DNA of 64,000 nucleotides from a virus. Both the position numbers and the translations under genes were made by a program. The notes under the pieces were generated by a model. It saw only the letters and a program-made list of their open reading frames with translations, was not told the origin of the DNA and made no database searches. How positions within the stretch are numbered: position 1 is the stretch's first letter; every line of letters begins with the position of its first letter. Below are positions 1 through 61,748 of this stretch, one piece after another. The DNA lies in IMG/VR virus record IMGVR_UViG_3300042261_001117, positions 1-64,000 of that record. The stretch is one strand, 5' to 3'.

Positions 1-2
1 CG

Positions 3-590
3 TTCTCGCTGGTGGGCTGGCTGCCGAACGCGGTGGAGTGGGGCTGCGAGCCGTACGACATGCGGACGACGCTGCTGCACGGTCCGAACGCGCAGGTCGT
101 TCCGCGTGGGCAGCCCGGCATCCACGAGGGCAAGAAGGGGCGCTACAGGTCGATCCCGTTCCGCCACTACACGCCGGGGTCGAGCGGGTACGAGGGCTCC
201 GTCATGGGGATGCCGTACGAGCAGATGCTGGGGCCCGACGCCGCGCGAAAGCTCGGTCAGCAGGTCTACAACACGATGCGCGCGCGCGTGGCCGCAGCAA
301 AGGCGAGCGGCTCCGCGAGGACCGTGCGGCTTCCGGCGTCTGCTGGCGGGCCACTGCTTCGCCCGCACCACACGACCGGCATCTACACCGGCATGGTCCG
401 TCCAGAGCGCGCGTACAAGGGCACCACGCAGGGCTTCTACCAGACGTTCCGCACCATCTCGGACGGCAACCCGGTGGGGTGGATGCACCCGGTCATCGAG
501 CCGCAGGGGCTGATGATGGACACGGTGTCGTACCTCGAGCAGACCGCGGGAGCCACGCTCGTGGAGATCATGACCGCAGGTGACGCATGA
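3..590 (+). CDS. Virion morphogenesis protein, 5'-truncated by window edge
   Basis: The reading frame is open from the first bases of the window, so the true start lies upstream; the GTG at position 12 is unlikely to be the start. About 195 residues are visible and I do not recognise the family. The stop overlaps the ATG of the next gene (ATGA), so the two are translationally coupled. Its place just before a tail-terminator-like gene and the sheath gene suggests a neck, head-completion or tail-completion role. That is inference from order only. Confidence 0.6.
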   Translation, partial: FSLVGWLPNAVEWGCEPYDMRTTLLHGPNAQVVPRGQPGIHEGKKGRYRSIPFRHYTPGSSGYEGSVMGMPYEQMLGPDAARKLGQQVYNTMRARVAAAKASGSARTVRLPASAGGPLLRPHHTTGIYTGMVRPERAYKGTTQGFYQTFRTISDGNPVGWMHPVIEPQGLMMDTVSYLEQTAGATLVEIMTAGDA

Positions 591-1279
591 ACGACGGCGT
601 CGACAAGATCGTGGCGGACTACCTCGAGCGCGTGAAGGTCACGCTGCTGACCGACGACGCGCTGTGGACGCGGCTGCTCGGGCGGTCGCTCGACGCGGCA
701 ACGATCGCGGTGGTGCGGGACTCGTTCCGCGGCGCGAAGGAGCACGTGGCCACGCCCACGGTGGTGCTGGCGTACCCGCGCAGCCGCCAGCCGTGGCCCG
801 TGTGGTGCGTGGTCCTGCTCGAGGACACGCCCGACGAGGAACTGCTCGGAGAGAGCGAAGGCATCGAGCGGGACGACGAGACCGGCGAGGACGTCGAGGT
901 GCAGACGATCGTGAGCCGCCAGACGGTGGCGATCATGGTCATCGACAACCGCAACCCGGACATCGCTCGGTGGCAGTCGATGCTGGTGAAGCGCGCGATG
1001 ATGATGGGGCTCAACGAGATCCTCAGCGACGAGGAGAACTCCGTCAGCGGGATGTACTTCAGCGGAATGGGCGACATGCCTCCGATGCCGTGGCTGCCGG
1101 AGGAACTGTACGGGCGCACGCAGCGGTGGTCGTTCGTCGTCGCGGAGAGCGTCGCGAGCGGCTACGACGGGCTGGTGCGCGGGCCTCTGTACGTAGGAGC
1201 GGAAGGCTTCGTCCTCGACGAGGATGGTGAGGTGACCGGCGGCGGGCACGCGTACAGCACCCGCGAGGACGAGGAGTAG
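587..1279 (+). CDS. Putative tail terminator / tail completion protein
   Basis: This is a 230-residue soluble protein with no membrane segment and an acidic loop around residues 83-105. Residues around 165-180 (PMPWLPEELYGRTQRW) resemble the late strand of tail-terminator and neck proteins, which often precede the sheath gene in myoviruses. It starts with an ATG inside the stop of the upstream gene. A hairpin and promoter follow it and separate it from the sheath operon. The assignment rests mainly on position. Confidence 0.5.
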   Translation: MNDGVDKIVADYLERVKVTLLTDDALWTRLLGRSLDAATIAVVRDSFRGAKEHVATPTVVLAYPRSRQPWPVWCVVLLEDTPDEELLGESEGIERDDETGEDVEVQTIVSRQTVAIMVIDNRNPDIARWQSMLVKRAMMMGLNEILSDEENSVSGMYFSGMGDMPPMPWLPEELYGRTQRWSFVVAESVASGYDGLVRGPLYVGAEGFVLDEDGEVTGGGHAYSTREDEE

Positions 1280-1306
1280 GCGCCGGGGCTTGTGCCAAAC
1301 CGGCGC
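1280..1306 (+). other. Inverted repeat overlapping the sheath promoter -35
   Basis: GCGCCGG (1280-1286) and CCGGCGC (1300-1306) form a perfect 7-bp inverted repeat that begins directly after the stop codon of the preceding gene. The 3' arm lies in the promoter spacer and the -35 lies in the loop. It could be a weak terminator without a U-run or an operator. Confidence 0.45.
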
Positions 1307-1318
1307 TGTGGGTAGAAT
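1290..1318 (+). promoter_or_regulatory. Promoter of the sheath/tail operon (TTGTGC-17-TAGAAT)
   Basis: TTGTGC at 1290-1295 and TAGAAT at 1313-1318 are separated by exactly 17 bp, 27 bp upstream of the sheath ATG. The same -35 hexamer with the same spacing recurs at 17884-17912 before another structural gene, which supports a real late/structural promoter class. Confidence 0.65.
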
Positions 1319-1344
1319 CGAGCGGACACGCGGAGGGACAGGCC

Positions 1345-3381
1345 ATGCCGGAGCAGTTCGTCATCAACGGAGTCGGGTCGTACGAAGAGGGCGTGCGCAC
1401 GCGTGCGGACTTCAGCGCTCTCGAGGGCGCGGGCACCGCGACGAAGGGCACGGTCGGGCTGCTCATGGAAACCTCGCGCGGCGGGAAGCCCACCACCGGG
1501 CAGGAGATCACATCGGCTGCGACGCTGCGGCGGCTGATCCCCGAGCCCTACGCGACGTACCTCGAGAAGACGCTGTTCGCGCCGGGCAAGCAGAGCGACC
1601 GCATCCCCATGGGCGCACAGAAAATCATCTTCGTCCGCGTCAACAAGGCGGAGCAGGGGACGCTGACGCTGGTCAACGACGACGGCGACGCGGTCGACCT
1701 CAAGAGCGCGGACTACGGGCTGTACGCCAACGACATCCTCGTGACCGTCGCGAACGGCACCAGCGTCGGCCGCAAGGTCACCGCCGTGCTCGGAAGCGTG
1801 ACCGAGGTGGTCGACGACGCTGGCGACCTCGACGCGCTGCAACTGAAGTTCACGGCGCCGGACACGCCCGGGTACACCGTGCTGGGCATGGTGGCGACGG
1901 TCGACCCGGACGTGGGCGTGCAGGTCGACTTCGACCTGCGGCACGCAGACAACAGCACGTGGGACTGGACCGCCGCCAACAACAAGATGGCCATCGACGG
2001 CCCGCTGACGATCACCATCGAGCACACCGAACTGGCCAACAAGGTGTTCGTGGTGACCGGGCGCAACAAGGCGAACGGCGCGGTCACCGTCGAGAACGTC
2101 CAGATCGACGCTGGGCTGAAGACCGAGACGTCGCTCACCGAGTGGTCGGAGATCACGTCCATCGAACTTCCGGACCTGCTCGACGGCGGCAACAACAACC
2201 GTGCGGAGTTCACCGGGCACGCGTTCGACCTGCCGGTCGCGACGTACGACACCATCAGCAAGGTCGCAGCGCGCGTGGCCACGAAGGCCGCCGCTGGCTT
2301 CACCGCCACGCTCAAGACCGCCAAGACGTCGTTCCTCGTGTCGGACCTCGACAAGGCGAGCGACCAGACCATCGTCGGCGGGCACACGTTCACCGCGGAC
2401 CTCTACGACTTCATCGAGGACGTGAACGCCGGTCTGACGCTGATCACCGCGGAGCGCGCGGCGTCGGTCACCGCCGCGGGGCTGCCGAACACCATCGGCG
2501 AGACCGCCATGGCGGGCGGCAACGACGGGCTGTACGACGACGGCACGTCGTGGACCGACGCGCTGAAGGAACTGAAGAAGTGGGGCAAGTCGCTGCTGCT
2601 CCCGATGACGGCCGACGCGGGCATCCTGGCGTCTTGCCTCGACCACTGCGTCTACATGTGGGGACGCGGGAAGTACGAGTGCGCGATGTTCGCGGCTCCG
2701 CCCGCGCAGACGGACCTGACCGGAGAGGACGACGACAACCTCTACGCGAAGACGAGGGCGTTCAACAGCGAACTGGTGACGTTCACGCCCCAGGAGATCA
2801 AGCTCTACGATCACAACCGCGTGGCGCAGTGGCTGTCGCCGATGTGGACGGCGGCGCTGGCGTGCGGCTGCGAGGCCGGGCGCTCGCCGGACTACGGGCT
2901 GACGCACGCGTACGTCGACGTGGTCGACTACCGCGACAACCCGGACGGCGACTCGCCGTGGACGGTCGAAGACCAGACCGAGGAACTGCTGGGGCACGGG
3001 TGCTTCGTGCTCGAGCGCAACCTGTCGACCGGCGGGGTGCGGTGGAAGCGCGACGTGACCACGTACCAGATCGACTCGAACCCGATCAAGTCGTCGCTGT
3101 TCGCGATGACGCAGTTCGCGCTGTCGACGCGCGACCTTCGCGAGTGGCTGGAGATCCAGATCGGCAAGGCGCAGTGGACGGGGTCGCGCAAGGACGTCGA
3201 GAAGCTCGCGCGCCAGAGGCTGGAGTACCAGATCGGCGCGAAGATGATCAAGGCGTTCAAGCCCCGCACGGTCAAGGCGATCGACCTGGGCAACGGCTTC
3301 CGCGTCGACTGGCACGTGGCGCCCGCGGAGACGACGTACTTCATCGAAGCGGTCGCGCACCCGATGCGCATGCCGTCGTAG
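1345..3381 (+). CDS. Contractile tail sheath protein
   Basis: The 678-residue protein has the organisation of myovirus tail sheaths. The N-terminal domain has the typical pattern of a named end, a GKP..GQEITSAATLRRL segment near residues 48-67 and a beta-rich region (VRVNKAEQGTLTLV). The C-terminal domain has the conserved restart-type segment ERNLSTGGVRWKRDVTTYQI (about 556-575), then a helical run and a closing beta strand. The next gene is tube-sized, as expected for sheath-tube pairs. In virions the sheath polymerises around the tube and contracts to drive it through the envelope. The ATG is preceded by GGAGGGACAG and by a consensus-like promoter. Sheath identity is based on length, terminal motifs and gene order. 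Confidence 0.88.
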   Translation: MPEQFVINGVGSYEEGVRTRADFSALEGAGTATKGTVGLLMETSRGGKPTTGQEITSAATLRRLIPEPYATYLEKTLFAPGKQSDRIPMGAQKIIFVRVNKAEQGTLTLVNDDGDAVDLKSADYGLYANDILVTVANGTSVGRKVTAVLGSVTEVVDDAGDLDALQLKFTAPDTPGYTVLGMVATVDPDVGVQVDFDLRHADNSTWDWTAANNKMAIDGPLTITIEHTELANKVFVVTGRNKANGAVTVENVQIDAGLKTETSLTEWSEITSIELPDLLDGGNNNRAEFTGHAFDLPVATYDTISKVAARVATKAAAGFTATLKTAKTSFLVSDLDKASDQTIVGGHTFTADLYDFIEDVNAGLTLITAERAASVTAAGLPNTIGETAMAGGNDGLYDDGTSWTDALKELKKWGKSLLLPMTADAGILASCLDHCVYMWGRGKYECAMFAAPPAQTDLTGEDDDNLYAKTRAFNSELVTFTPQEIKLYDHNRVAQWLSPMWTAALACGCEAGRSPDYGLTHAYVDVVDYRDNPDGDSPWTVEDQTEELLGHGCFVLERNLSTGGVRWKRDVTTYQIDSNPIKSSLFAMTQFALSTRDLREWLEIQIGKAQWTGSRKDVEKLARQRLEYQIGAKMIKAFKPRTVKAIDLGNGFRVDWHVAPAETTYFIEAVAHPMRMPS

Positions 3382-27818: not shown

Positions 27819-27860
27819 AGCCCCAGCGCTACCGGTAACCGTGACGGTGGCGCTGGGGCT
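27819..27860 (+). terminator. Strong hairpin after the MoxR-VWA cluster
   Basis: An 11-bp perfect stem (27819-27829 with 27850-27860) continues through a T-G pair and three more pairs (ACC 27831-27833 with GGT 27846-27848), enclosing GGTAACC. It lies between the stop at 27790 and the next ribosome-binding site. No U-run follows, so it may be an intrinsic terminator variant, an RNA-processing site or an insulator. Confidence 0.55.
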
Positions 27861-31306: not shown

Positions 31307-31315
31307 GTGGTTGCC

Positions 31316-32470
31316 ATGATCGCCAAGTTCCTGCACCTCGCGGACCTGCACATCAACGCGCAGGCCACGCTGGCCGGGCAAGTGCGCGTCGGACCCAACG
31401 GCATCAACCTCCGCACCGCGGACCTGCTGCGCGCGATCGGCGCGGTGGCTGCGGAGGCGTCTCGCGACGGCGACCTGTTCGGCGCCGTCATCGCGGGAGA
31501 CCTGTACGACCACGACCGCCCGACGCCGCTCGAGGAGGAGATCGCGGCGACGATCATCGAGACGCTCAGCGGCGCGTGCGCGGGCTGCAGTACGAAGGTG
31601 CTGGTGATCGATGGCAACCACGACATCCCGCGCGGGACGGGCCCGAGCGCACCGACGTCGCTGAACTGGCACCCGCTGGCGATGATGATTCACGATCCGG
31701 AGGTGGTCTGCTACTACGGGCTGCGGATCGGGTGTCTGCCGTACCCGCGCATCGGCGGCAACGCGGAGTTGCTGCGCGCGGGCGCGGTCGATGCGATTGC
31801 CGCGGGGCTGCGAGCGGGCGGCGCGGATGTGCTTGTCGCGCATGCGAACACAGGGCAGGCGGTGGCGGGCAAGCAGCCCCGCCCACTGGACGACGCGGTC
31901 ACGCTCTCGCACGCTGTCCTGGCGCAGTTCCCGTGCGTGATGCTCGGGCATATCCACCGCCCGCAGGAGTGGGGCCCGGTCGCGTACTGCGGATCGCCGA
32001 TGGTCGAGGACTGGGGCGAAGCAAACGACGGTACGGTGCGCGGCGCGGCGCTGTGGACGCTGGAGTGCGACGCAGATCTGGCGTCGTCGCCGCCGGACTA
32101 CACGGTGCGCTCCGCGACGCTGCGGAGACTCTCCGCTCCGGACAGGACGTGGATCGACATCCCGGCGGACCAGTGGTGCGAGGATTCCGTTGACCCGTCG
32201 TCGGGCGCGGTCCATCGTGTCAAGGGGCGGCTGCGGGCGACGGACGCCGCCGCGGTGCACGCGGAGATCAGATCGCTACGGGCGAAGGGCGCTCTGATCC
32301 AGGCGGAGATCACGATCGAGCAGGAGGACCGGCGCCGCAGCGAGGACGTGGCGCGTGCGCTGACCGACGATCAGATCCTGCTGGGCGCGATCAAGCTGCG
32401 GCAGACCGATCCTGCGATCGTCGACGGCGCCATGGCGGTTGTGCAGGACATACTCGGGGGTGGAGCATGA
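31316..32470 (+). CDS. sbcD: SbcD/Mre11-like nuclease subunit
   Basis: The ATG at 31316 is preferred over GTG 31307 because GTAGGTGG lies at the right distance; length is 384. Metallophosphatase motifs are complete: HLADLH (about 6-11), GDLYDHDRP (about 62-70), GNHDIPRG (about 98-105), VAHANTG (about 176-182) and MLGHIHRPQ (about 206-214). It forms the nuclease half of the SbcCD/gp46-47 complex, which trims DNA ends and hairpins during phage recombination and replication. The stop overlaps the ATG of the ATPase partner. Confidence 0.9.
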   Translation: MIAKFLHLADLHINAQATLAGQVRVGPNGINLRTADLLRAIGAVAAEASRDGDLFGAVIAGDLYDHDRPTPLEEEIAATIIETLSGACAGCSTKVLVIDGNHDIPRGTGPSAPTSLNWHPLAMMIHDPEVVCYYGLRIGCLPYPRIGGNAELLRAGAVDAIAAGLRAGGADVLVAHANTGQAVAGKQPRPLDDAVTLSHAVLAQFPCVMLGHIHRPQEWGPVAYCGSPMVEDWGEANDGTVRGAALWTLECDADLASSPPDYTVRSATLRRLSAPDRTWIDIPADQWCEDSVDPSSGAVHRVKGRLRATDAAAVHAEIRSLRAKGALIQAEITIEQEDRRRSEDVARALTDDQILLGAIKLRQTDPAIVDGAMAVVQDILGGGA

Positions 32471-34800
32471 TCCCAGTTCGAATCGCGGTTCAGAACTTCA
32501 ACAGCTACACCGGAGCGGAGATCGACTTCACCGGCGTGCGATCGGCGATGGTGGTCGGCGACACCGGCGCGGGCAAGAGCACGCTGTTCGTCGACGCGTT
32601 CCTGTGGGCGACCACCGGCCAGTGCCGGGCGCCCGGGATCGACGACGTCATCCGCCTGGGCGCGGACGAGTGCGGCGTCGATTACACGTACCTCGCGGAC
32701 GGGCAGATGCGGCGCGTCGTGCGTACCCGGTCGCGGAAGGGCCGTGGAAGCGGCACGCTCGAGTACTACGTCGACGGCCAGTCGCGCAACGGCGCCAACG
32801 TGAGCGAGACGCAGAAGGCGATCCTCGCGGACCTGCGCGTCGACTACGCGACCATGGTGACGACGAGCTTCCTGGTCCAGGGCAAGAGCGGGGCGTTTGC
32901 GGAGGCGCCCAGGCGTGAGCGCATGGCGCTGGTGGCGCGGATGATCGGCTGCGACCGCTTCAAAATCTACGCGGAGACCGGTCGCGAGATGGCCCGCAAC
33001 ACGAAGGCGGAGATCGCCGCTCGCGAGACGAACGCCGCGGCTCTGGAAGGACAGACCAGCGACGAGTTGCTCGAGCGGCTGCGGGTTGCGTGGGCGGATG
33101 CGACGGCGCTGCACCAGCGCTCGGCAGACCGCGAGGCGGAGATCGCGGTTGAGATGCTCAACGCCCGCAACCTCGTGGCCATGTGCGAGGACGGTGCCCG
33201 GCGCAACGCGGAGACCAGGGCTGCGCTCAACGCCGAACTCGGCAAGGGTGCGGACCTGCGACTGCGGCGCCGGTCGCTGGATGCGGAAAGCGAGCGACTC
33301 GACCGGGCGATGATCGATCTGCGGGCGCAGGTCGACGCGGATGCGCCAGATCTGGATGCGCTTCGAGCGGCGGCGGAGCTTGCCACGTCGGCAGCTACTG
33401 CTGCACGCGAAGCGGAGGTGGCGGCGCGAACCACGGCGGCGAACGCAGAGCGCGAAGCGGATGCTGCTCGACACGCGCACCAGATGGCAGAGCAGGAGGC
33501 GCTGGCGGAGTACCGCGCGAAAACGGCAGACCTGACCACTCGCACCGAGCGCGCCACCGCGGAGTGCAGGGCGCTGGCAGATCGCCTGCAGCAATCACGC
33601 GACGCGCGGAAGCGCATCTCGCAGGTGCCATGCGGAGGACTCGGCGACTACGCGACGTGCCCGCTGATCGAGGTCGCTGTCTCCAGCCAGTGCGACGAGG
33701 GTGCTCTGGCGGAGATGCTTTCCGCAGCGAACGCGGCGCTGTCTGCGCTGCAGTCGGAACGAATGTCCATGCCGTATGCGGTGCAAGAGACGCAGAAGAC
33801 GATCGAGACGAAGAGCACTCGTGTTGCGGCAGCAAAGACGCGCGACGATGCCACGGCGTCTGCCACGGAACGCCAAGCCGATGCACAGCGTGCGCTGCGC
33901 GCGCTCTCCGACGCGCAGTCGGCGCTTTCCAGCGCGGAGGCGCGCGCTACCGCGCAGGCGTCCGCCCGCGCGACCATGGACGCAACGTCGGCCAACGTCG
34001 CGCGCGTGCGTGGCGATCTGGCCGCCATCGACGATGCCATCGCTGTGTCGGATCGCGAATGCGCGGTCTTGCGTGGTGCCATCGACGCGGAGGTCGACGC
34101 CCGGCTGGCGGCTTGCCGCGCGAACGTCGAGCGGCTGTCCACCGAGGCCGCGCAAGCGGCGCGCGCCACGGCGACCGCTGCTGGCGCAGTCGCGAACGCC
34201 GCGCGGGCCATCGACGACGTCGGCGCGATGCGCAAGCGGCTCGCGTCGGAGCGCGCTGAGATCCAGACGCGCGCCAAGCATCTCGCGCACATCGAGGTGG
34301 CGGTCGCGGCGTGTAAGGACGCGCCGCAGCTACTGATCGAATCCATCGTTCCCAGCATCGAGATGAAGGCGAACGAACTGCTCTCGCGCGTCTCGAACAC
34401 CAGCATGCAGGTGCAGCTACGGACGCAGGCGGAGTTGAAGTCGCGCGAGGCCATGGCGGAGACGCTGGACGTGATCGTGGTCGACGAGATCGGCGAGCGT
34501 CCGTACGAGATGTACTCCGGAGGCGAGCGCTTCCGCATCGACTTCGCGCTGCGGGTGGCGCTGTCGTGGGCGCTGTCGATCCGCGCGGGCGCTCCGCTCG
34601 AGATGCTGGTCATCGACGAGGGCTTCGGCACGCAGGACGCGGCGGGGAAGCAGGCCTTCGCGGAGTGCTTGAACTCGGTCAACGACTTGTTCGAGAAGGT
34701 GATCGTGATCTCGCACGTGCCCGAGATGGAGAGCGCGTTTCCTGCGCGCTTCCGCGTGACGAAGGGCCCGAGCGGCAGCACCATCGCGCGGGAGGTGTGA
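32467..34800 (+). CDS. sbcC: SbcC/Rad50-like SMC ATPase
   Basis: The 777-residue protein has Walker A GDTGAGKST (31-39) at the N-terminus, two long Ala/Arg/Glu-rich coiled coils and, at the C-terminus, the ABC signature YSGGERFRID (about 679-688), Walker B LEMLVIDEGFGTQD (about 707-720) and the following D-loop. The hook region near residues 383-401 (VPCGGLGDYATCPLIEV) has two cysteines, but they are not in the usual CxxC form; this variant is common among phage proteins. With SbcD it makes an ATP-dependent nuclease. It is much shorter than bacterial SbcC, as expected for phage gp46-like proteins. Confidence 0.9.
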   Translation: MIPVRIAVQNFNSYTGAEIDFTGVRSAMVVGDTGAGKSTLFVDAFLWATTGQCRAPGIDDVIRLGADECGVDYTYLADGQMRRVVRTRSRKGRGSGTLEYYVDGQSRNGANVSETQKAILADLRVDYATMVTTSFLVQGKSGAFAEAPRRERMALVARMIGCDRFKIYAETGREMARNTKAEIAARETNAAALEGQTSDELLERLRVAWADATALHQRSADREAEIAVEMLNARNLVAMCEDGARRNAETRAALNAELGKGADLRLRRRSLDAESERLDRAMIDLRAQVDADAPDLDALRAAAELATSAATAAREAEVAARTTAANAEREADAARHAHQMAEQEALAEYRAKTADLTTRTERATAECRALADRLQQSRDARKRISQVPCGGLGDYATCPLIEVAVSSQCDEGALAEMLSAANAALSALQSERMSMPYAVQETQKTIETKSTRVAAAKTRDDATASATERQADAQRALRALSDAQSALSSAEARATAQASARATMDATSANVARVRGDLAAIDDAIAVSDRECAVLRGAIDAEVDARLAACRANVERLSTEAAQAARATATAAGAVANAARAIDDVGAMRKRLASERAEIQTRAKHLAHIEVAVAACKDAPQLLIESIVPSIEMKANELLSRVSNTSMQVQLRTQAELKSREAMAETLDVIVVDEIGERPYEMYSGGERFRIDFALRVALSWALSIRAGAPLEMLVIDEGFGTQDAAGKQAFAECLNSVNDLFEKVIVISHVPEMESAFPARFRVTKGPSGSTIAREV

Positions 34801-35407: not shown

Positions 35408-35689
35408 ATGCGGATCGCGATTCTCTGCGTGCTGGTGGTGCTGGCTGCGTGCTCGCGCGGCAACTACTGCAAGGAAGCGAAGACCATCATGGACGACTGC
35501 GGCTTCGGGCCGTCGTCGGAATCGTCGACGGCGCTGCGGTCGGCGTGCGACGCCGGAGCGGCGGACGCGGTGATGCTCGCGAAGTGCTTGATCGTGGCGG
35601 ACCGCTACGAGCAGACGCGCGGGTGCTCGCAGATGCGGTTCATGACGTGCGTCGAACTGGTGTCGCGAGCACGATCCGGCAGGCTGTGA
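35408..35689 (+). CDS. Small lipoprotein
   Basis: The 93-residue protein has a classic lipoprotein signal, MRIAILCVLVVLAACSRG, with lipobox LAAC and Cys15. The mature part has six cysteines and is helical. The ATG follows TAGGGGGCGACC. Phage lipoproteins may serve in superinfection exclusion or lysis; the sequence does not decide. Confidence 0.6.
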   Translation: MRIAILCVLVVLAACSRGNYCKEAKTIMDDCGFGPSSESSTALRSACDAGAADAVMLAKCLIVADRYEQTRGCSQMRFMTCVELVSRARSGRL

Positions 35690-35707: not shown

Positions 35708-35737
35708 TTGACGGGAGCGGCGCGAACGGCGTAGCGT
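35708..35737 (+). promoter_or_regulatory. Promoter of the replication unit (TTGACG-18-TAGCGT)
   Basis: TTGACG at 35708-35713 and TAGCGT at 35732-35737 with an 18-bp spacer. The predicted transcription start falls at about 35744, directly at the first arm of the interlocked inverted repeats. Confidence 0.55.
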
Positions 35738-35742
35738 GTTCG

Positions 35743-35827
35743 TGCAACCGGCTCTGTTCACCAATCAAGCTCTCGCGCCCCCCGGTGGTGGCGACTCTTC
35801 GGAGCCGGTTGCACCCACCACCGGGGG
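35743..35827 (+). ncRNA. Two interlocked long inverted repeats in the replication leader
   Basis: Arm A (35743-35754, TGCAACCGGCTC) is perfectly complementary to A' (35802-35813). Arm B (35779-35791, CCCCCGGTGGTGG) is perfectly complementary to B' (35815-35827). The order A-B-A'-B' means the two hairpins cannot both form fully, since only 1 nt separates A' from B'. A further CCACGC/GCGTGG pair (35828-35833 with 35855-35860) frames the region before the ribosome-binding site. The 135 bp are noncoding. They could be a two-state RNA leader, a small RNA or a DNA element at the replication origin. Confidence 0.6.
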
Positions 35828-35872
35828 CCACGCGAGTTTTGTGCGCTGGGCGTAGCGTGGCGAGGAGTGCGC

Positions 35873-36985
35873 ATGGGCGGCACTAGCTGGGTACGCATGG
35901 ACGCAGCGTACGACGACCATCCGGACGTTCGGCGCGCTGGGCTTGAGGGTAGCGTGGTGTTTCAGGCGCTCGTGCGCAGATCGAAGCTGTTTGGCCTCGA
36001 CGGCATCGTCAGCAAGAAGTACCTCGACGTGGAGTACCTAGCGGACGTGCTGAAAGCTCCACAGGACTTCATCCAGCGCGGGCTGGTGGCGTGCTTGCGC
36101 GTTGGACTGATCCGCGACGGCGATGGCGGCGTGACGATACCAGGGTGGGATCGCTTCCAGAGTCCCGACACGTTGCGGAAGCAGCGCTACACGGAACGGC
36201 ACGGACGAGACGCAGCAGATGGTGCGCAGCAGGTTGATCCGTTCCTGTCCGTTCCAAGAACGGACGAGAACGGACGAGAACGGATTGGAACGGATTGTCC
36301 GTCTGACGTGACGGTACGTGACGAGACAGGACGTGACGAGACGCACGAGCACTGCGCGCGCGCGCGTACGCACGAGGATTCGACCCCAGCACCCGCCGCA
36401 CCGACCACGCCGCCGCCTGATCCCGCGCGGCTCGCTGCGATCCGAAACGAGATGGCCATGGCGGACGCGCAGCGAGAAGCCGAGAGCGGCGTGCGTGTGC
36501 GCCCACTTCGCGTCGATCCGGAGCGCGAGGCCCGTGACGCCGCGTGGGCGGAAGAGATGGCGCTAGCGGCCAACGTCGCGCACGACGACGGCAAGATCCT
36601 CTCGGTCTACCAGCACTGGCTCGACTCCGCGGGTTTGCCTCCGCGCTGCATGTGCCCCGACGACCTGTACATGGGCAAGACGTTCCGACTGCTGGTGCTG
36701 GAGCGGCTGAGAGACGGGCTGACCTACGACGACATGAAGCGGGCGATCACGTCGTGCCACGGAAGCAAGCGGCATCAGGAGCGCGGCGTGTCGGGGTGGG
36801 GCGCTATCCTGCGGTCGCTCTCGACGGTGCAGGAGTTCATGGCAATCGCCAACGCGAAGGCCAAGCCGCAGCAGCGATCGGGTAGGCTGTCTGACGAGGA
36901 ATTCGCGAAGCGGTACGAGGAGCGCAAGGCGGAGAAGGCGCGGAACGAGGCGCTGCTGGCACAACACGGTCGGGGTCCGAGATGA
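35873..36985 (+). CDS. Putative replication initiator (DnaD/O-like)
   Basis: The ATG at 35873 has a GAGGAG site 5 bp upstream; length is 370. Residues 1-110 (VRMDAAYDDHPDVRRAGLEG to GWDRFQSPDTLRKQR) match the winged-helix N-terminus of phage replisome organisers. Residues 225-345 form a helical domain (WLDSAGLPPRCMCPDDLYMG to GAILRSLSTVQEFMA) like DnaD-type C-termini. The linker between them is coded by repeated DNA described separately and gives an odd RDETGRDETHEH peptide. The next gene is helicase-loader-like. The pair corresponds to lambda O and P in layout. Confidence 0.65.
   Translation: MGGTSWVRMDAAYDDHPDVRRAGLEGSVVFQALVRRSKLFGLDGIVSKKYLDVEYLADVLKAPQDFIQRGLVACLRVGLIRDGDGGVTIPGWDRFQSPDTLRKQRYTERHGRDAADGAQQVDPFLSVPRTDENGRERIGTDCPSDVTVRDETGRDETHEHCARARTHEDSTPAPAAPTTPPPDPARLAAIRNEMAMADAQREAESGVRVRPLRVDPEREARDAAWAEEMALAANVAHDDGKILSVYQHWLDSAGLPPRCMCPDDLYMGKTFRLLVLERLRDGLTYDDMKRAITSCHGSKRHQERGVSGWGAILRSLSTVQEFMAIANAKAKPQQRSGRLSDEEFAKRYEERKAEKARNEALLAQHGRGPR
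36239..36342 (+). repeat. Iteron-like repeats inside the initiator gene, candidate replication origin
   Basis: CCGTTC occurs at 36239-36244 and 36249-36254, and its complement GAACGG starts at 36258, 36268, 36278 and 36288, giving four tandem 10-bp units (two GAACGGACGA, two GAACGGATTG) in helical phase. GTCCGTTC and GAACGGAC (36247-36254, 36258-36265) form a perfect palindrome around CAA. Then ACGTGACG occurs at 36306, 36316 and 36331, the last two as 12-bp ACGTGACGAGAC repeats. Lambda and related phages keep initiator-binding iterons inside the O gene, so an origin is a reasonable inference. Confidence 0.6.
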
Positions 36986-44061: not shown

Positions 44062-44106
44062 CCCCTGCAGGACGTGACGCCCCACGACACCGCAGGGGTT
44101 CTTTTT
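44062..44106 (+). terminator. Intrinsic terminator before the ParB-methyltransferase genes
   Basis: CCCCTGC (44062-44068) and GCAGGGG (44092-44098) form a stem with an inner CGTG/CACG pairing, followed directly by TTCTTTTT (44099-44106). It is the clearest intrinsic terminator in the window. The ribosome-binding site of the next gene follows at once. Confidence 0.75.
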
Positions 44107-44119
44107 GAGGAGGCATCCC

Positions 44120-45568
44120 ATGGCACGAAAGCGATCGGCAGCGGACCAGACGCCGCTGACCATCGACGACCTCGCATCCGACCCCCGCAACCCTCGCACC
44201 ATCTCGGAGACCGCGCTGGCTGGGCTTGACGTGTCGGTGACGACGTGGGGCGACCTGTCGGGCATCACGTTCAACCGCAGCAACGGGCAGTTGATCGGCG
44301 GGCACCAGCGGGTTCGTCTGCTGCGCGCAGCCGGAGCGCAGGTGCAGTACGACGAGCGGGGCCCGTTCCTGGTCGACCCGCGCACCGACGAGCGCTTCCC
44401 GATCCGCGTGGTGGACTTCGACGAGGAGAACCACCTCGCGGCCAACCTCGCAGCGAACGCGCCAAACCTGCAGGGTGAGTTCTCGGTCGACGCGTTGCCG
44501 ATCTTGGAGTCTCTGTCCGAAGACCTGCCGGACCTCTACGGGTCGCTCGGGTTTGACGCGCTGGCGGAGACGCTCGGCGCGCAGTTCAAAGAGCCCGACG
44601 CCGGTGGCCCGCGCACGACCACGCCCGGTGAGCACGACGACGACGTCCCGCCAGCGCCCAAGAATGTCGTCAGCCGGACGGGAGACATCTGGTGCATCGG
44701 GAAGCACAAGCTGATCGTCGCGGACGCGGGAGATCGCGCGGCCATCGCGAAGCTGATGGGGGGGGGCGTCGCGGATCTGTGCTTCACCAGCCCGCCGTAT
44801 GGCCAGCAGCGCGAGTACAAGAGCGGTGGCATCAACGACTGGGACAAGCTCATGCAGTCGGTGTGCGCGGCTCTTCCGATGGCGCAGGACGGGCAGGTGC
44901 TGGTGAACCTGGGGCTGATCCACCGCGACAACGAGTACATCCCGTACTGGGAGCGGTGGATCGAGTGGATGCGGTCGGAGGGGTGGCGGCGATTCGCGTG
45001 GTACGTGTGGGACCAGGGAGCGGGCATGCCCGGCGACTGGGGCGGTCGGCTGGCTCCGGCGTTCGAGTTCGTGTTCCACTTCAACAAGGCGTCGAAGCAT
45101 CCGAACAAAATTGTGGAGTGCAAGAACGCGGGAAAGGTGTCGCATGGCGTGGGCGGCGACGGTCTTCGCGGCAAGGACGGCGAGTTCGGGACGTGGCAGC
45201 ATGGCGGATCGCCGACGCAGTCGCATCGCATTCCAGACTCTACGATCCGCATCGAGCGACACCACGGAGCGATCGGCGACGACATCAGCCACCCCGCGGT
45301 GTTCCCGGTGGCGCTTCCGATGCACGTGATCGAGGCATACTCGCAGCACGGAGACGTGCTGTACGAGCCGTTCTGTGGCTCCGGGACCACGATCATCGCG
45401 GCGGAGCGCACGGGTCGCGTCTGCCGCGCTGTCGAGCTAGCGCCGGAGTACGCGGACGTGACGCTGGCGCGGTTGTCGCAGGTGTTCGAGAACATCCAGA
45501 TCACGCTCGAGTCGACAGGCGAGGCGTACGAGGTGGTCGCGGCTCAACGGGACGGAGGTGACGCGTGA
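44120..45568 (+). CDS. ParB-like/DNA methyltransferase fusion 1 (SPPY type)
   Basis: The ATG at 44120 follows GAGGAGG; length is 482. Residues 1-155 are a ParB/Srx-like domain (LASDPRNPRTI, QLIGGHQRVRLLRAAG, IRVVDFDEENHLAANL). A linker and an amino-methyltransferase domain follow, with motif IV LCFTSPPYGQQREY (about 220-233) before motif I EPFCGSGTTIIAAE (about 415-428), the beta-class order. SPPY is typical of N4-cytosine enzymes but not restricted to them. The ParB part often guides or regulates the methylase. The next gene has the same plan. Confidence 0.85.
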   Translation: MARKRSAADQTPLTIDDLASDPRNPRTISETALAGLDVSVTTWGDLSGITFNRSNGQLIGGHQRVRLLRAAGAQVQYDERGPFLVDPRTDERFPIRVVDFDEENHLAANLAANAPNLQGEFSVDALPILESLSEDLPDLYGSLGFDALAETLGAQFKEPDAGGPRTTTPGEHDDDVPPAPKNVVSRTGDIWCIGKHKLIVADAGDRAAIAKLMGGGVADLCFTSPPYGQQREYKSGGINDWDKLMQSVCAALPMAQDGQVLVNLGLIHRDNEYIPYWERWIEWMRSEGWRRFAWYVWDQGAGMPGDWGGRLAPAFEFVFHFNKASKHPNKIVECKNAGKVSHGVGGDGLRGKDGEFGTWQHGGSPTQSHRIPDSTIRIERHHGAIGDDISHPAVFPVALPMHVIEAYSQHGDVLYEPFCGSGTTIIAAERTGRVCRAVELAPEYADVTLARLSQVFENIQITLESTGEAYEVVAAQRDGGDA

Positions 45569-46890
45569 GCGAGCAGAAGTTGCTGAGCATCGACGAACTG
45601 GCAAGCGCTCCATGGAACCCACGGACCATCAGTGATGCGGCACTGAGTGGGCTCGGCGGTTCGATCAAGGCGTTCGGCGACCTCGCTGGGATCGTCTGGA
45701 ACGCTTCCAACGGGCAGTTGGTCTGTGGCCACCAGCGCATCAAGGTGCTGCGCGCCAAGGGTGCGACCATCGAGCACGACGAACGCGGGCCGTTCATCGT
45801 GGACCCGGAGACCGGCGAGCGCTTCGGAATCCGCGTGGTCGAGTGGTCGGAGGATCGCCACGTGGCAGCATGCATCGCGGCCAACAACACCGCGATCACC
45901 GGCGAGTTCACCGCGGACACACTCCCCATGCTCCAGTCGATCGCGGACGACGATCCCGCGCTGTTCGCTGGTGCGGGCTTCGCACCGCTGCTCGAAGCGC
46001 TCGGGATGCAGTTCTCGGACACGCGGAAGGCCGGGCAGAGCGATCCGGACCAGGACGTCGCGCCACCTGCGCCCGAGGAGACCATCACCAAGACGGGCGA
46101 CATCTGGCTGTGTGGGCCCCACCGCGTGGCGTGCGGCGACTCGCTGAAGGACGAAGACCTTGTGCGCCGCCTGTTCAACGGAGGGCTGGCGGACATGACC
46201 TTCACCGATCCGCCATACAATGTGAACTACGGCGAGACGATGAAAGACAAGCTTCGCGGGCCGAAGCACAAGAAGATCGCCAACGACAACCTCGGCGCGG
46301 ACTTCCCGGCGTTCCTGCTGGACGCGTGCAAGGTGATCATCGCGTGGACGAAGGGCGCGTGCTACGTCTGCATGTCGTCGTCGGAGTTGCACTCGCTGCA
46401 GAAGGCGTGGCTGGACGCCGGAGGGCACTGGTCGACGTTCATCATCTGGAAGAAGCACACGTTCACGATCGGCCACGCTGACTACCAACGGCAGTTCGAG
46501 CCGATCCTCTACGGATGGGGCGAGGGCACGAAGCACTTCTGGTGCGGGGCCCGGGACCAGGGCGACGTGTGGGAGATCGACAAGCCGAGCCGCAGCCCGC
46601 TGCACGCGACGACGAAACCGGTGGCGCTGGCGGAACGCGCGATCGTGAACTCCTCGAAGAGCCGCGACACGGTGTTCGAGCCATTCTGCGGGTCGGGCAG
46701 CACGCTGATCGCGTGCGAACGTACCGGGCGCATGGCGCGCACGTGCGAACTCGATCCCAGCTACGTGGACGCGCAGGTGGCGCGGTGGATGGCGTACTGC
46801 GGCGGGCAGGCGGTGCGCGAGTCGGACGGCTACAAGTTCCCGCTGGACGCTCCGGTGTTCAAAAAGGTCGCGGAGCAGAAGGATAAGTAA
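45565..46890 (+). CDS. ParB-like/DNA methyltransferase fusion 2 (DPPY type)
   Basis: It starts at GTG inside the stop of fusion 1; length is 441. The ParB-like part (1-150: ELASAPWNPRTI, QLVCGHQRIKVLRAKG, RHVAACIAANNT) is clearly homologous to that of fusion 1. The methylase has MTFTDPPYNVNYG (about 211-223) and EPFCGSGSTLIACERTGRMA (about 371-390). DPPY points to N6-adenine. A gene duplication followed by change of specificity explains the tandem pair. Confidence 0.87.
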   Translation: MSEQKLLSIDELASAPWNPRTISDAALSGLGGSIKAFGDLAGIVWNASNGQLVCGHQRIKVLRAKGATIEHDERGPFIVDPETGERFGIRVVEWSEDRHVAACIAANNTAITGEFTADTLPMLQSIADDDPALFAGAGFAPLLEALGMQFSDTRKAGQSDPDQDVAPPAPEETITKTGDIWLCGPHRVACGDSLKDEDLVRRLFNGGLADMTFTDPPYNVNYGETMKDKLRGPKHKKIANDNLGADFPAFLLDACKVIIAWTKGACYVCMSSSELHSLQKAWLDAGGHWSTFIIWKKHTFTIGHADYQRQFEPILYGWGEGTKHFWCGARDQGDVWEIDKPSRSPLHATTKPVALAERAIVNSSKSRDTVFEPFCGSGSTLIACERTGRMARTCELDPSYVDAQVARWMAYCGGQAVRESDGYKFPLDAPVFKKVAEQKDK

Positions 46891-46918: not shown

Positions 46919-46947
46919 TTGACAACGCGCGTGGCGCGGGCTACGCT
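46919..46947 (+). promoter_or_regulatory. Promoter TTGACA-17-TACGCT
   Basis: A consensus -35 at 46919-46924 preceded by ATTCTTTT, and TACGCT at 46942-46947, spacer 17 bp. It starts the accessory gene region. Confidence 0.65.
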
Positions 46948-46982
46948 CTCCATCGACAGCAGACCACCAGGGCGAGGTGGCG

Positions 46983-47480
46983 ATGGACCAGGACTTCCGC
47001 GGCAGCACCTACGATCCGAACCAGGACCGCGACCGCCTCATGAACTACACGCAGCGGGTGTTCTCGCTGCTGCTCGATGGTGCGTGGCACACGCCCGCGC
47101 AGTTGCGCGAGGTCGGCGGCGGTGAGTGGTCGCGGCGCGTGCGGAACCTCCGCGAGCCGCGCTTCGGGGGCTTCTCTGTCGACACCTCGCGCGACCCGGA
47201 CAAGCCGGGCAAGTGGCTTTACCGGCTGCTGGACGTGGACCAGATCTCGCAGGCTCAGATCGACGCGGTGATGCGCGGCGACGTGGACGACCGCAATCCG
47301 CTCGCGCCCAGCACGCAGAAGGACCGCGAGACGCGGCTGCGGAAGTGCATCAACCGCCGCGTGGGCCGCATGCCGGAGGACTGGCTGCGGATGCTCGAGC
47401 AGTGGATGACGCACGGGCTTCCGGTGGAGATGGCAAAGCGGCAGGCTGCGAGCGCGCAGCAGGCCGCGCTGAGGTTGTAG
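46983..47480 (+). CDS. Winged-helix DNA-binding-like protein
   Basis: ATG 46983 is preferred over GTG 46977. The 165-residue protein has a wHTH at about 20-75 (YTQRVFSLLLDGAWHTPAQL, GEWSRRVRNLREPRFGGFSV, then a wing with KWLYRLL), a pattern shared by small phage regulators. The rest is helical and basic. It is the first gene after a strong promoter and may control the accessory region. Confidence 0.55.
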   Translation: MDQDFRGSTYDPNQDRDRLMNYTQRVFSLLLDGAWHTPAQLREVGGGEWSRRVRNLREPRFGGFSVDTSRDPDKPGKWLYRLLDVDQISQAQIDAVMRGDVDDRNPLAPSTQKDRETRLRKCINRRVGRMPEDWLRMLEQWMTHGLPVEMAKRQAASAQQAALRL

Positions 47481-57804: not shown

Positions 57805-57832
57805 TTGACAACGACGCGTGCCGGGGTACGAT
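57805..57832 (+). promoter_or_regulatory. Promoter TTGACA-16-TACGAT
   Basis: A consensus -35 at 57805-57810 and TACGAT at 57827-57832, spacer 16 bp, 57 bp upstream of the next ATG. It closely resembles the promoter at 46919 (shared TTGACAACG start). Confidence 0.7.
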
Positions 57833-57889
57833 GGCGTCGTGTGCATCGGTCGGGCGACCGGTGTGGGTCTACCATCGCGGAGGAGCATC

Positions 57890-58174
57890 ATGACGGACAA
57901 GGTGATCGTGCGGACCGTGAACGCGGGCGTCCACTACGGCACGCTCGACAGCCGCGACGGCGGCGAGGTGGTGCTGACGGGAACGCGCAGGATGTGGTAC
58001 TGGGACGGCGCCGCGTCCCTGTCGCAGTTGGCGCGCGACGGCGTGTCGAAGCCGAAGACGTGCAAGTTCTCGGTGACGCTCGACAAGATCACGGTGCTCG
58101 GAGCCATCGAGATCATTCCGTGCACCGAGAAGGCCGTGGCGTGCATCGAGGCGGTGCCCGAATGGACCGCGTGA
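57890..58174 (+). CDS. DUF6948-like protein
   Basis: The ATG at 57890 has a GGAGGAGCATC site; length is 94. The sequence VNAGVHYGTLDSRDGGEVVL, TRRMWYWDGAASLSQLARDG and IEIIPCTEKAVACIEAV is close to the DUF6948 family (name from memory), a small beta domain common in phages and in metagenomic contigs. Its function is unknown. The downstream repeat gene overlaps it, so they are coexpressed. Confidence 0.7.
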   Translation: MTDKVIVRTVNAGVHYGTLDSRDGGEVVLTGTRRMWYWDGAASLSQLARDGVSKPKTCKFSVTLDKITVLGAIEIIPCTEKAVACIEAVPEWTA

Positions 58175-58488
58175 GCGGCTCCGGCTCCGGCTACGGCGAC
58201 GGCTCCGGCTCCGGCTCCGGCTCCGGCGACGGCTACGGCTCCGGCGACGGCTACGGCGACGGCTACGGCTACGGCGACGGCGACGGCTACGGCGACGGCG
58301 ACGGCTACGGCTCCGGCGACGGCTACGGCTCCGGCGACGGCTACGGCGACGGCTACGGCTACGGCGACGGCGACGGCTACGGCGACGGCTCCGGCGACGG
58401 CTACGGCTCCGGCGACGGCTACGGCGACGGCTACGGCTACGGCGACGGCGACGGCTACGGCGACGGCTCCGGCTCCGGCGACGGCTAG
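58162..58488 (+). CDS. Gly-X repeat protein (GSGYGDG low complexity)
   Basis: Starting at ATG 58162 inside the preceding gene, the 108-residue product is MDRVS followed by strict alternation of Gly with Ser, Tyr or Asp. A larger unit of about 26 residues (SGDGYGSGDGYGDGYGYG and onward) recurs two to three times. All Gly codons are GGC and the others TCC, TAC or GAC. Such sequences resemble phase-separating or adhesive low-complexity proteins. No ribosome-binding site is evident apart from coupling. The stop overlaps that of the minus-strand gene (CTAG). Confidence 0.6.
   Translation: MDRVSGSGSGYGDGSGSGSGSGDGYGSGDGYGDGYGYGDGDGYGDGDGYGSGDGYGSGDGYGDGYGYGDGDGYGDGSGDGYGSGDGYGDGYGYGDGDGYGDGSGSGDG
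58175..58488 (+). repeat. GGC-NNC hexanucleotide tandem repeat
   Basis: The DNA is a run of GGC followed by TAC, GAC or TCC, about fifty 6-bp units with higher-order blocks of about 78 bp. Slippage or unequal exchange would change the length in whole-codon steps. Confidence 0.8.
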
Positions 58489-59927: not shown

Positions 59928-61681
59928 AGTCCGCCGCACCTCCGCGCGGCGCCCGGCGACCGCAGGCGTCTCCGTCGCCGATCATCGTCCCGCGCATCAC
60001 CGAGCCGCTGCGGGCGGTCGTCCCGCCCGCGGTGCTCCGCCAATCGAAGGAACTCAACCCCGAGCAGCGTACCGCGCTCAAGACCGCGATCGTGTCGGTG
60101 CTCGACGACTGGCTGCGTCCGTACCAGCGCGAGTGGCTGGCGGACACGTCCCAGCACAAGGTGGCCAACTGGTCGCGCCAGATCGGCAAGAGCGAGGTGA
60201 TCTCGCTCGAGGCGATTCTTCAGGGCCTCGAGCCGCCGGAGACGATGGAGAAGTGCGAGATCCTCGTCAGCGCCAGCCAGTCGCAGGCGAACGAGATCAT
60301 GATGAAGGCCGTGCGCTGGAGCCACATCATCGACGAGATCGCGCGCAAGACGCTGGGCGTCTCGATCTACATGAACGGCAAGGGCCCGCAGTCCGCTCAC
60401 CCGGAGCAGATCTGGTTGTACAATTCCGTGCGCGTCATCACGCTGCCCGCGAACCCGTACTCCGCTGCGGGCTACCACGGCGACGTCTTTTGGGATGAGG
60501 TCGCCAAGACTCCCCACGATGACCTGATGTGGGACGCGCTGCACCCGATGATCTCCGGCAACAACTACCGCTTCCGCGCCACCAGCACGCCGTGGGGCGA
60601 CCAGGGGAAGTACTACGAGATCTGGCACAACCTCCCCGACTGGTCGAAGCACCAAGTCACGATCATCGACGCCGTGCGCCAGGGCGTCCCGCGCGACCTG
60701 GAGTCCATGCGACGCCAGTACGACGCGATCACCTGGGCGCAGAACTACCTGTGCCGATTCCTCTCGTCGCTGACGAGCGCGTACCCGCGCGACCTGCTGA
60801 AGGCTGCGATCGAGTTGTACTCCGACCTGCCGGACCTACCGCGCGCGCCAGCTCCGGGCGTCTGGCCGGACGACGTGTACGTGACGCTGGGCATCGACAT
60901 CGGCCGCACCAACGACCGCACCGCGCTGGTGTGGGAGTACGAGTACCCGCAGGGCTGCTACCGCTTTGAGCGCGTGCGGCAACTGGTCAAGATGCCGTTC
61001 GCGCAGCAAGAGCAGGTCATCCGCGAGATCCTGCGCGGCGGCGAAGTTCACAAGTGCCAGATCGACTCGACCGGCATCGGCATGCAGATGGCGGAGAACC
61101 TCTCGAACGAGTTCCCCGAGATCGTGCGACCGGTGACGTTCACGAACCAGCAGAAGGCGCAGATGGTGCTGGCCATGCGCGCGGACTTCGAGCGCGGCGT
61201 GCTGGCCATGGTGCCGGACAACGACCTGCTCAGCGACTTCACCTCGGTGCGGCAGGAGATCCTGGAGTCGTCGCGCACGGTGCGGTTCGGCAGCGCACGC
61301 ACCGCCAGCGGGCACGCGGACGGGCACTGGGCGGCAGGCCTCGCGCACGACGCGCAGGTCAACCGCGCGGAGTGGCAGGTCGGCGACAGCGACGTGGACG
61401 AGCCGGTCATCCGGCGTCGGCAGCAGGGCAAGGGCTTCTCGATCGAGACGCCGCTTCCGGTCGATCCGTACTACGGCGGCATGGGCGGGATGCCGAAGGG
61501 CAGCGACATCACCGGCGGCCCGAGCTACGAGGGCGACCTCGACGACCTGTCGATGCTCGACGACGAGACGCTGGAGATGAAGCTGCTGGGGCTGGACCCG
61601 GACGACTACGACGAGGACCAGGAGAAGCGCACGGCTGGCCGCCGAGCGCAATTGTTCAAAGGCGTTCGCAAAAAGAGTTGA
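59924..61681 (+). CDS. terL: Terminase large subunit (T4 gp17-like)
   Basis: The 585-residue protein has an ATPase domain with the T4-type Walker A NWSRQIGKSE (82-91), Walker B DVFWDEVAK (187-195) and a coupling ATSTPWGD motif (219-226). The nuclease domain starts with GIDIGRTNDRTALVWEY (323-339), where Asp325 is the first metal ligand, and includes KCQIDSTGIG with a second Asp. It cuts concatemers and pumps DNA into the prohead. T4-like enzymes usually package by headful, so terminal redundancy is expected. A promoter overlaps its last codons. Confidence 0.92.
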   Translation: MKSAAPPRGARRPQASPSPIIVPRITEPLRAVVPPAVLRQSKELNPEQRTALKTAIVSVLDDWLRPYQREWLADTSQHKVANWSRQIGKSEVISLEAILQGLEPPETMEKCEILVSASQSQANEIMMKAVRWSHIIDEIARKTLGVSIYMNGKGPQSAHPEQIWLYNSVRVITLPANPYSAAGYHGDVFWDEVAKTPHDDLMWDALHPMISGNNYRFRATSTPWGDQGKYYEIWHNLPDWSKHQVTIIDAVRQGVPRDLESMRRQYDAITWAQNYLCRFLSSLTSAYPRDLLKAAIELYSDLPDLPRAPAPGVWPDDVYVTLGIDIGRTNDRTALVWEYEYPQGCYRFERVRQLVKMPFAQQEQVIREILRGGEVHKCQIDSTGIGMQMAENLSNEFPEIVRPVTFTNQQKAQMVLAMRADFERGVLAMVPDNDLLSDFTSVRQEILESSRTVRFGSARTASGHADGHWAAGLAHDAQVNRAEWQVGDSDVDEPVIRRRQQGKGFSIETPLPVDPYYGGMGGMPKGSDITGGPSYEGDLDDLSMLDDETLEMKLLGLDPDDYDEDQEKRTAGRRAQLFKGVRKKS

Positions 61682-61706
61682 CGATCGTGATGGGCCGTCG
61701 TAACGT
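61678..61706 (+). promoter_or_regulatory. Promoter (CAAAAAGAG-TTGACG-17-TAACGT)
   Basis: TTGACG at 61678-61683 overlaps the terminase stop; TAACGT at 61701-61706. The upstream AAAAAGAG tract and the -10 are shared with the MoxR-VWA cluster promoters, 35 kb away. Confidence 0.7.
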
Positions 61707-61748
61707 GGCACCATGACGCGGACGAACCGCGGCGAGAGGGGGTCGACC

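What the first reader, a model, noticed from the sequence alone, without database searches (positions are those of the whole stretch)
35743..35827. Interlocked 12- and 13-bp perfect inverted repeats at a transcription start
A-B-A'-B' order of two long perfect inverted repeats in 85 noncoding bases is very unlikely by chance. The predicted start of transcription (about 35744) puts the whole element at the 5' end of the replication transcript. Because A' and B' are 1 nt apart, the two hairpins are nearly exclusive, which suggests a two-state switch, an attenuator, a small RNA or a structured origin element.
Basis: seen in the sequence. Interest (0 to 1): 0.8.

Follow-up and report, generated by a model that had tools for sequence, protein, structure and literature searches.

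The report
Interlocked-hairpin leader of phage replication operon
Just after a predicted phage promoter lie two perfect 13-bp hairpin stems woven through one another, an arrangement chance almost never gives; they probably fold into a knotted RNA at the start of the replication message that decides whether transcription continues, but no related phage was found to confirm it.

Summary
A (35742-35754)/A' (35802-35814) and B (35779-35791)/B' (35815-35827) are two perfect 13-bp inverted repeats in the order A-B-A'-B'. They are the two longest perfect inverted repeats (span up to 140 bases) in the whole 89-kb phage record, and they abut. The extrapolated shuffle expectation for such an interlocked pair is about 1e-4 per genome or less. 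A TTGACG-N18-TAGCGT promoter is one of six such sites in the record, all on the + strand (shuffles: 0.15), and puts the transcript start at about 35744. B/B' continues into a lower stem (CTCGCG/CGCGAG) followed at once by TTTT, a terminator-like end just before the ribosome-binding site of a putative replication-initiator gene.

The "nearly exclusive two-state switch" reading is not supported: the helices share no base, geometry allows both, an H-type pseudoknot scores below either hairpin (z = -9.7), and nested interconversion would cross about 28 kcal/mol. An origin element is unlikely: a 10-bp-phased iteron array sits 400 bp downstream, inside the initiator gene.

Best reading: a pseudoknotted, attenuator-like leader RNA of the replication operon. 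Structure and position are well supported by sequence; function is inferred. No homologous region was found, so covariation could not be tested.

The parts
35708..35737 (+). sigma-70-type promoter TTGACG-N18-TAGCGT
   Evidence: One of 6 matches to TTGAC[AG]-N16-18-TA...T, all on the + strand, none on -, shuffle mean 0.15; predicted start about 35744
35742..35754 (+). arm A (GTGCAACCGGCTC); begins within 2 nt of the predicted transcript start
   Evidence: Perfect 13-bp inverted repeat with 35802-35814
35779..35791 (+). arm B (CCCCCGGTGGTGG)
   Evidence: Perfect 13-bp inverted repeat with 35815-35827
35795..35804 (+). CTC-TTCG-GAG mini-hairpin inside the B/B' loop; its 3' side overlaps the start of A', so it is exclusive with A/A'
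   Evidence: Sequence and fold
35802..35814 (+). arm A' (GAGCCGGTTGCAC)
   Evidence: Pairs with A; abuts B' with 0 nt between
35815..35827 (+). arm B' (CCACCACCGGGGG)
   Evidence: Pairs with B
35771..35776 (+). 5' strand of the lower stem that extends B/B' (CTCGCG)
   Evidence: Extended inverted repeat I1 and fold
35831..35836 (+). 3' strand of the lower stem (CGCGAG)
   Evidence: Extended inverted repeat I1 and fold
35837..35840 (+). T-run directly after the lower stem: terminator-like end
   Evidence: Terminal hairpin -42.6 kcal/mol, best of the + strand T-runs of the record, but two minus-strand T-runs reach similar values
35862..35867 (+). Shine-Dalgarno-like GAGGAG
   Evidence: 5 nt before ATG 35873
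35873..36985 (+). putative replication-initiator gene (370 aa), the gene the leader serves
   Evidence: Weak PHROG 16167 'replication initiation protein' match, E 6e-4, C-terminal part; no Pfam match; contains an iteron array
36238..36294 (+). iteron array: six GAACGGA sites at exact 10-bp spacing (two inverted, then four direct), the probable origin

Best explanation
The element is the 5' leader (about 35744-35841) of the phage's replication-operon transcript. Its RNA folds into an H-type pseudoknot of two unusually long perfect helices: A/A', which forms first and closes the 5' end of the RNA, and B/B' with a lower stem, which forms last and ends in a U-run like an intrinsic terminator. The order promoter, structured leader, terminator-like hairpin, ribosome-binding site, initiator gene is that of an attenuator. 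I propose that transcripts stop or pause at about 35837-35841 unless the B/B' terminator is prevented. A/A' forms while B' is still inside the polymerase and traps B in its loop, so it can delay or hinder closure of B/B' and its lower stem. The balance (kinetic, or set by a protein or RNA that recognises the pseudoknot) meters both initiator synthesis and transcription through the origin-like iterons inside that gene. Shown: the repeats, their significance, the promoter statistics, the gene order, the U-run. Inferred: transcription, the pseudoknot in the RNA, termination, and its control.
For: Interlocked perfect 13+13 bp, unique in the genome and not expected by chance. Pseudoknot score z = -9.7 against shuffles, best of 4459 windows; nested fold only z = -2.9. 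Promoter is one of six, all on the + strand, which places the start inside arm A. B/B' extends through a small internal loop to a second stem and then TTTT, an RNA-hairpin feature not expected of a protein operator. TTTT occurs only 21 times on the + strand of 89 kb. Growing-chain folding gives A/A' up to about 35831 and B/B' from 35835. A-form geometry permits both helices. The predicted state of the ribosome-binding site is the same whichever leader helix forms, which points to transcription rather than translation. The downstream gene looks like a replication initiator with internal iterons.
Against: No transcript data and no homologous region, so no covariation. The U-run is short (UUUUGUG) and the B loop long (23 nt) for an intrinsic terminator; two other T-runs on the minus strand have comparable hairpins, presumably by chance, and the standard terminator scan finds nothing here. 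The predicted start (35744) would leave the first two pairs of A/A' outside the RNA. No leader peptide, known riboswitch or other sensor is recognisable. Because A/A' and B/B' share no base, the antitermination step is steric or kinetic and is inferred. With the lower stem formed, loop 1 (16 nt, reach about 102 A against about 93 A needed) is near its limit.
Confidence: 0.45

Rival explanations
1. A free-standing small RNA of about 97 nt (35744-35841), made by full termination at the U-run, that acts in trans on a host or phage target or protein; the replication gene is served by readthrough or by an upstream promoter.
For: Own promoter and terminator-like end; compact, very stable 5'-closed fold.
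Against: No antisense match longer than 11 nt to the + strand anywhere else in the record; no Rfam family; sits directly before a gene's ribosome-binding site, as leaders do.
Confidence: 0.14
2. A put-like cis-acting antitermination RNA: the folded nascent leader stays on RNA polymerase and lets it pass downstream terminators.
For: Position just downstream of a phage promoter and size match HK022 putL, which is about 70 nt and lies just downstream of PL (PMC9378689).
Against: put is two consecutive stem-loops, not interlocked (PMC9378689); here the second helix ends in a U-run, the opposite of an antiterminator.
Confidence: 0.09
3. A 5'-end protector or ribosome-standby element: the 5'-terminal A/A' stem and the pseudoknot shield the replication mRNA from 5'-end-dependent decay, or help ribosomes to reach a start site that is itself buried in a hairpin.
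For: A/A' begins at the predicted 5' end; 5'-terminal stem-loops are reported to stabilise bacterial mRNA (papers cited in PMC3997798); a pseudoknot blocking RNase E scanning and S1 binding to a pseudoknot in the tisB standby site are described in PMC9373788; the initiator's Shine-Dalgarno is predicted paired in a local hairpin in every leader state.
Against: Does not need two 13-bp interlocked helices, the lower stem or the U-run.
Confidence: 0.13
4. A DNA-level element: paired binding sites for a regulator around the transcript start, or a hairpin-forming origin or processing site (the phage encodes an SbcCD-like hairpin nuclease just upstream).
For: Perfect complementarity extends 2 bp beyond the predicted start; the minus strand also folds strongly as DNA (z = -4.5); SbcD-like gene at 31307-32470 and SbcC-like gene at 32467-34800.
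Against: Spacing of the arms (37, 23 and 13 bp) has no regularity; arms are not palindromic and occur nowhere else in the window; internal loop, second stem and T-run are RNA features; the probable origin is an iteron array 400 bp away.
Confidence: 0.14
5. One reading: A/A' and B/B' as two mutually exclusive, interconverting hairpins.
For: In nested-only folding A/A' is replaced by B/B' as B' and the lower stem emerge.
Against: No shared bases; nested refolding barrier about 28 kcal/mol; both helices can coexist geometrically.
Confidence: 0.05

Closest known systems
Satellite phage P4 immunity leader (CI RNA, seqA, seqC)
   Same: Phage replication genes controlled by premature termination in an untranslated leader that carries mutually complementary segments (described in PMC4825925).
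   Different: In P4 a processed antisense RNA pairs with two target copies; here there are two different self-complementary pairs, interlocked within 86 bases, with a terminator-like hairpin of their own. No sequence relation was tested.
HK022 put RNA
   Same: Structured RNA of about 70-100 nt just downstream of a phage promoter, with two helical units (PMC9378689).
   Different: put helices are consecutive stem-loops, not interlocked; put suppresses termination, whereas a U-run follows the second helix here.
Pseudoknotted leaders with attached terminators (SAM-II riboswitch leaders; LEU element upstream of leuA in Actinobacteria)
   Same: Leader pseudoknot upstream of a gene, in some cases followed by a predicted terminator that releases a small RNA (PMC9373788; PMC1262725).
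   Different: No Rfam match here. The LEU element has a leucine-rich leader peptide and pairs with the Shine-Dalgarno. From own knowledge, riboswitch pseudoknot stems are much shorter than 13 bp.
C4 antisense RNA of phages P1 and P7
   Same: Phage RNA control through complementary segments (PMC12197685).
   Different: Acts as an antisense RNA around the ribosome-binding site of ant; the Rfam search of the whole record finds no such family.
Lambda replication region (pR, ori inside O)
   Same: Iterons inside the initiator gene and transcription running through them, which in lambda activates the origin (PMC3985674).
   Different: Lambda is not known to me to have such a leader; no relation of the initiator here to lambda O was detected by the family searches.

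Membership tests
H-type RNA pseudoknot | Two helices in A-B-A'-B' order | tested here: met
H-type RNA pseudoknot | Loops long enough for both helices to form together | tested here: met
   Idealised A-form distances against loop reach; marginal once the lower stem is included
H-type RNA pseudoknot | Both helices present in the RNA, or kept by compensatory changes in relatives | not testable with these tools
   No homologous region returned
Intrinsic terminator / attenuator | GC-rich hairpin directly followed by a U-run | tested here: inconclusive
   -42.6 kcal/mol hairpin ending at TTTT, but short U-run and long loop, and comparable cases on the other strand
Intrinsic terminator / attenuator | Alternative (antiterminator) pairing that shares bases with the terminator | tested here: not met
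   A/A' shares no base with B/B'; any antitermination would have to be steric or kinetic. So it is called attenuator-like, not a classical attenuator
Intrinsic terminator / attenuator | Lies between promoter and gene start | tested here: met
   Promoter 35708-35737, ATG 35873
HK022 put RNA | Two consecutive stem-loops | tested here: not met
   Helices are interlocked
Known RNA families (Rfam 15), including riboswitches and C4 antisense RNA | Covariance-model match at gathering score | tested here: not met
   Only a tRNA in the window; relaxed scan of the element gives only chance-level hits; rest of record none
P4-type immunity leader | Processed CI RNA complementary to two leader targets | not testable with these tools
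   Would need RNA mapping; each arm has only one exact partner in the window
Replication origin | Initiator-binding iterons within the element | tested here: not met
   GAACGGA iterons lie at 36238-36294, none in the arms

The most novel reading that the evidence does not exclude
A new class of phage leader RNA: a pseudoknot of two perfect helices longer than one helical turn, in which the first helix topologically traps one strand of a terminator, so that the timing of transcription (or a factor binding the knot) sets how often the replication operon and its internal origin are transcribed.
Probability: 0.22. Interest if true: 0.75.

Novelty: new variant of a known kind. Interest (0 to 1): 0.52.

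Why it matters
If the leader works as proposed, control of this phage's replication would rest on a topologically knotted nascent RNA, not on competing hairpins that share a strand. That would make a clean test case for whether helices longer than a full turn can thread during transcription. It would also show leader-RNA control placed directly upstream of a lambda-like origin inside the initiator gene, in a phage with almost no sequenced relatives.

Tried and rejected
Relatives: peptide scans of IMG/VR with the initiator, SbcD-like, radical-SAM, terminase and SbcC-like proteins returned nothing. The capsid protein found one 12.7-kb fragment, 69% identical, without the replication region. GTDB genomes, named phages and plasmids gave no relative of the region.

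DNA scan with the A'B' core CGGTTGCACCCACCACC: 26 viral contigs, none showing the element; most belong to one family of near-identical sequences and the matches look coding, without the inverted arms.

Ribozyme, riboswitch and miRNA-like Rfam hits: chance level. An HDV-like ribozyme was considered because it is also interlocked; rejected because there is no P3 or P4 and the first helix is 13 bp (own knowledge of that family).

Direct repeat GGCGTAGCGTG flanking the element (35728, 35849): 180 exact direct repeats of 11 bp or more within 130 bp occur in the record, so it is not remarkable.

Translational switch through the ribosome-binding site: predicted accessibility unchanged in every state.

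AlphaFold of the initiator from one sequence: mean pLDDT 47, not usable.

Full report
What is there. The window is bases 1-64000 of an 89,276-bp uncultivated virus record of about 68% GC. Between the end of a small lipoprotein-like gene (35408-35689) and the ATG at 35873 lies a 183-bp noncoding gap. In it are a promoter-like TTGACG-N18-TAGCGT (35708-35737), then A 35742-35754, B 35779-35791, A' 35802-35814 and B' 35815-35827. A/A' and B/B' are each 13 bp, perfectly complementary. A' and B' abut. B/B' extends through a small internal loop into CTCGCG/CGCGAG and is followed at once by TTTT (35837-35840), then GAGGAG (35862-35867) and the ATG.

Chance. In the whole record these are the two longest perfect inverted repeats with a span up to 140 bases. 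In 60 dinucleotide shuffles, interlocked pairs fall about 14-fold for each added base of arm: 24.6 at 8, 1.6 at 9, 0.117 at 10, 0.017 at 11, none at 12 or 13; the record has one at 13. A simple H-type pseudoknot score (stacking energies plus a 9.6 kcal/mol penalty) is -51.7 for 35744-35843 against a shuffle mean of -16.2, z = -9.7, and the region is the best of 4459 genome windows. The nested minimum (-45.5) is z = -2.9, and over a longer stretch z = -0.7. So the anomaly is the interlocking, not overall stability.

Promoter. The generic scan reports no site in this region because it demands a closer match. The pattern TTGAC[AG]-N16-18-TA...T occurs at 29541, 35708, 46919, 57805, 61678 and 82008, all on the + strand, the strand of the genes examined, and never on the minus strand; shuffles give 0.15. 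This is good evidence that the site at 35708 is a real promoter and that RNA starts at about 35744, within the first bases of arm A. The pattern was drawn up after seeing the 35708 site, so that one match is not independent; the other five and the strand bias are. The two outermost pairs of A/A' would lie outside the RNA, a small misfit.

Downstream gene. The 370-aa product has a weak PHROG match to replication initiation proteins (E 6e-4) and no Pfam match. Its gene contains six GAACGGA sites at exact 10-bp spacing, two inverted then four direct, at 36238-36294. Iterons within the initiator gene are the layout of lambda ori within O, where transcription through the origin activates it (PMC3985674). 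This makes the gene a probable initiator and places the probable origin about 400 bp downstream of the finding, which argues against the finding being the origin itself.

RNA or DNA. The internal loop, second stem and T-run on the 3' side of B/B' are what an RNA hairpin with terminator character has. Arms with spacings of 37, 23 and 13 bp and no recurrence elsewhere are not typical of operators. T-runs of four occur only 21 times on the + strand. Against this, among T-runs of the record two on the minus strand have comparable terminal hairpins, so the terminator reading taken alone is only moderately supported.

Switch or pseudoknot. Folding a growing chain without pseudoknots gives A/A' from about 35807 to 35831, then B/B' once the lower stem emerges. 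But the two helices share no base; a nested path between them climbs to about -9 kcal/mol from -37.7, so they would not interconvert thermally by that route. With idealised A-form helices stacked through the continuous A'B' strand, the 10-nt loop must span about 46 A (reach 66) and the 24-nt loop about 73 A (reach 150). With the lower stem formed, loop 1 is 16 nt and must span about 93 A (reach about 102). Both helices can therefore coexist, with strain once the lower stem is included. That strain suggests one concrete mechanism: a formed A/A' disfavours the last, U-run-proximal stem, and that stem is the one needed for termination. This is inference.

Translation. The ribosome-binding site lies in a local hairpin of its own (35841-35930, z = -2.1), and its predicted accessibility is the same with A/A', B/B' or both. 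The leader is therefore not predicted to act directly on the start site, although standby effects are possible.

Relatives. Only a 12.7-kb fragment sharing the capsid protein at 69% was found, without the replication genes. The scans rely on exact short peptides, so relatives below roughly 70-80% identity can be missed, and near-identical records may be left out by the tools.

Comparison. Functionally the nearest cases are the P4 replication leader, where premature termination depends on complementary leader segments (PMC4825925), and pseudoknotted leaders coupled to terminators such as SAM-II (PMC9373788). Position and size recall HK022 put (PMC9378689), but put has consecutive, not interlocked, stem-loops. 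No Rfam family matches. I file it as a new variant of a known kind: a structured phage leader RNA, attenuator-like, with a pseudoknot of unusually long helices. It is not filed as a classical attenuator, because the shared-base antiterminator that defines one was tested and is absent.

Noticed in passing
window 36238-36294: Six GAACGGA iterons at exact 10-bp spacing (two inverted, four direct) inside the putative initiator gene, a lambda-O-like origin layout; a related GAACGG sits in the promoter spacer at 35724.
   Followed up: partly
window 29541, 35708, 46919, 57805, 61678; record 82008: Six promoter-like sites TTGAC[AG]-N16-18-TA...T, all on the + strand, none on -, shuffle mean 0.15: a promoter map of the phage.
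   Followed up: partly
record 82057-82105 (L029:5057-5105): A second promoter-leader-hairpin layout: TTGACA promoter at 82008 followed by a strong hairpin (leader fold -34.5 kcal/mol) with a T-rich tail, shortly before a 529-aa ORF just upstream of the capsid gene; a possible second attenuator or processing hairpin.
   Followed up: no
window 46919-46985: Promoter whose leader can pair CCATCG/CGATGG and CCACC/GGTGG across the Shine-Dalgarno and start codon of the next gene.
   Followed up: no
window 61678-61713: Promoter whose predicted start coincides with the ATG at 61713: a possible leaderless mRNA.
   Followed up: no
window 27819-27860: 11-bp perfect hairpin AGCCCCAGCGC/GCGCTGGGGCT in an intergenic gap between 27790 and 27882.
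   Followed up: no
window 1-1354 and record 87923-89276: The two ends of the record match over 1354 bp at 96.1% (53 mismatches): either an overlapping circular genome assembled from two strains or a diverged terminal duplication.
   Followed up: partly
window 31307-34800: SbcD-like and SbcC-like genes (hairpin nuclease) lie just upstream of the longest perfect inverted repeats of the record.
   Followed up: no
L028:1461-2003: ORF with LWAS/LRAS short tandem peptide repeats (ASLRASLGASLRASLWASLWASLWASLRDSLRDS).
   Followed up: no
window 57805-58488: A frame encoding long GSGDGYGDG-type repeats; whether that frame is the coding one is open.
   Followed up: no
window 44105-46890: Two adjacent ParB-like/DNA methyltransferase fusion genes of the same family (phrog_498), probably a tandem duplication.
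   Followed up: no
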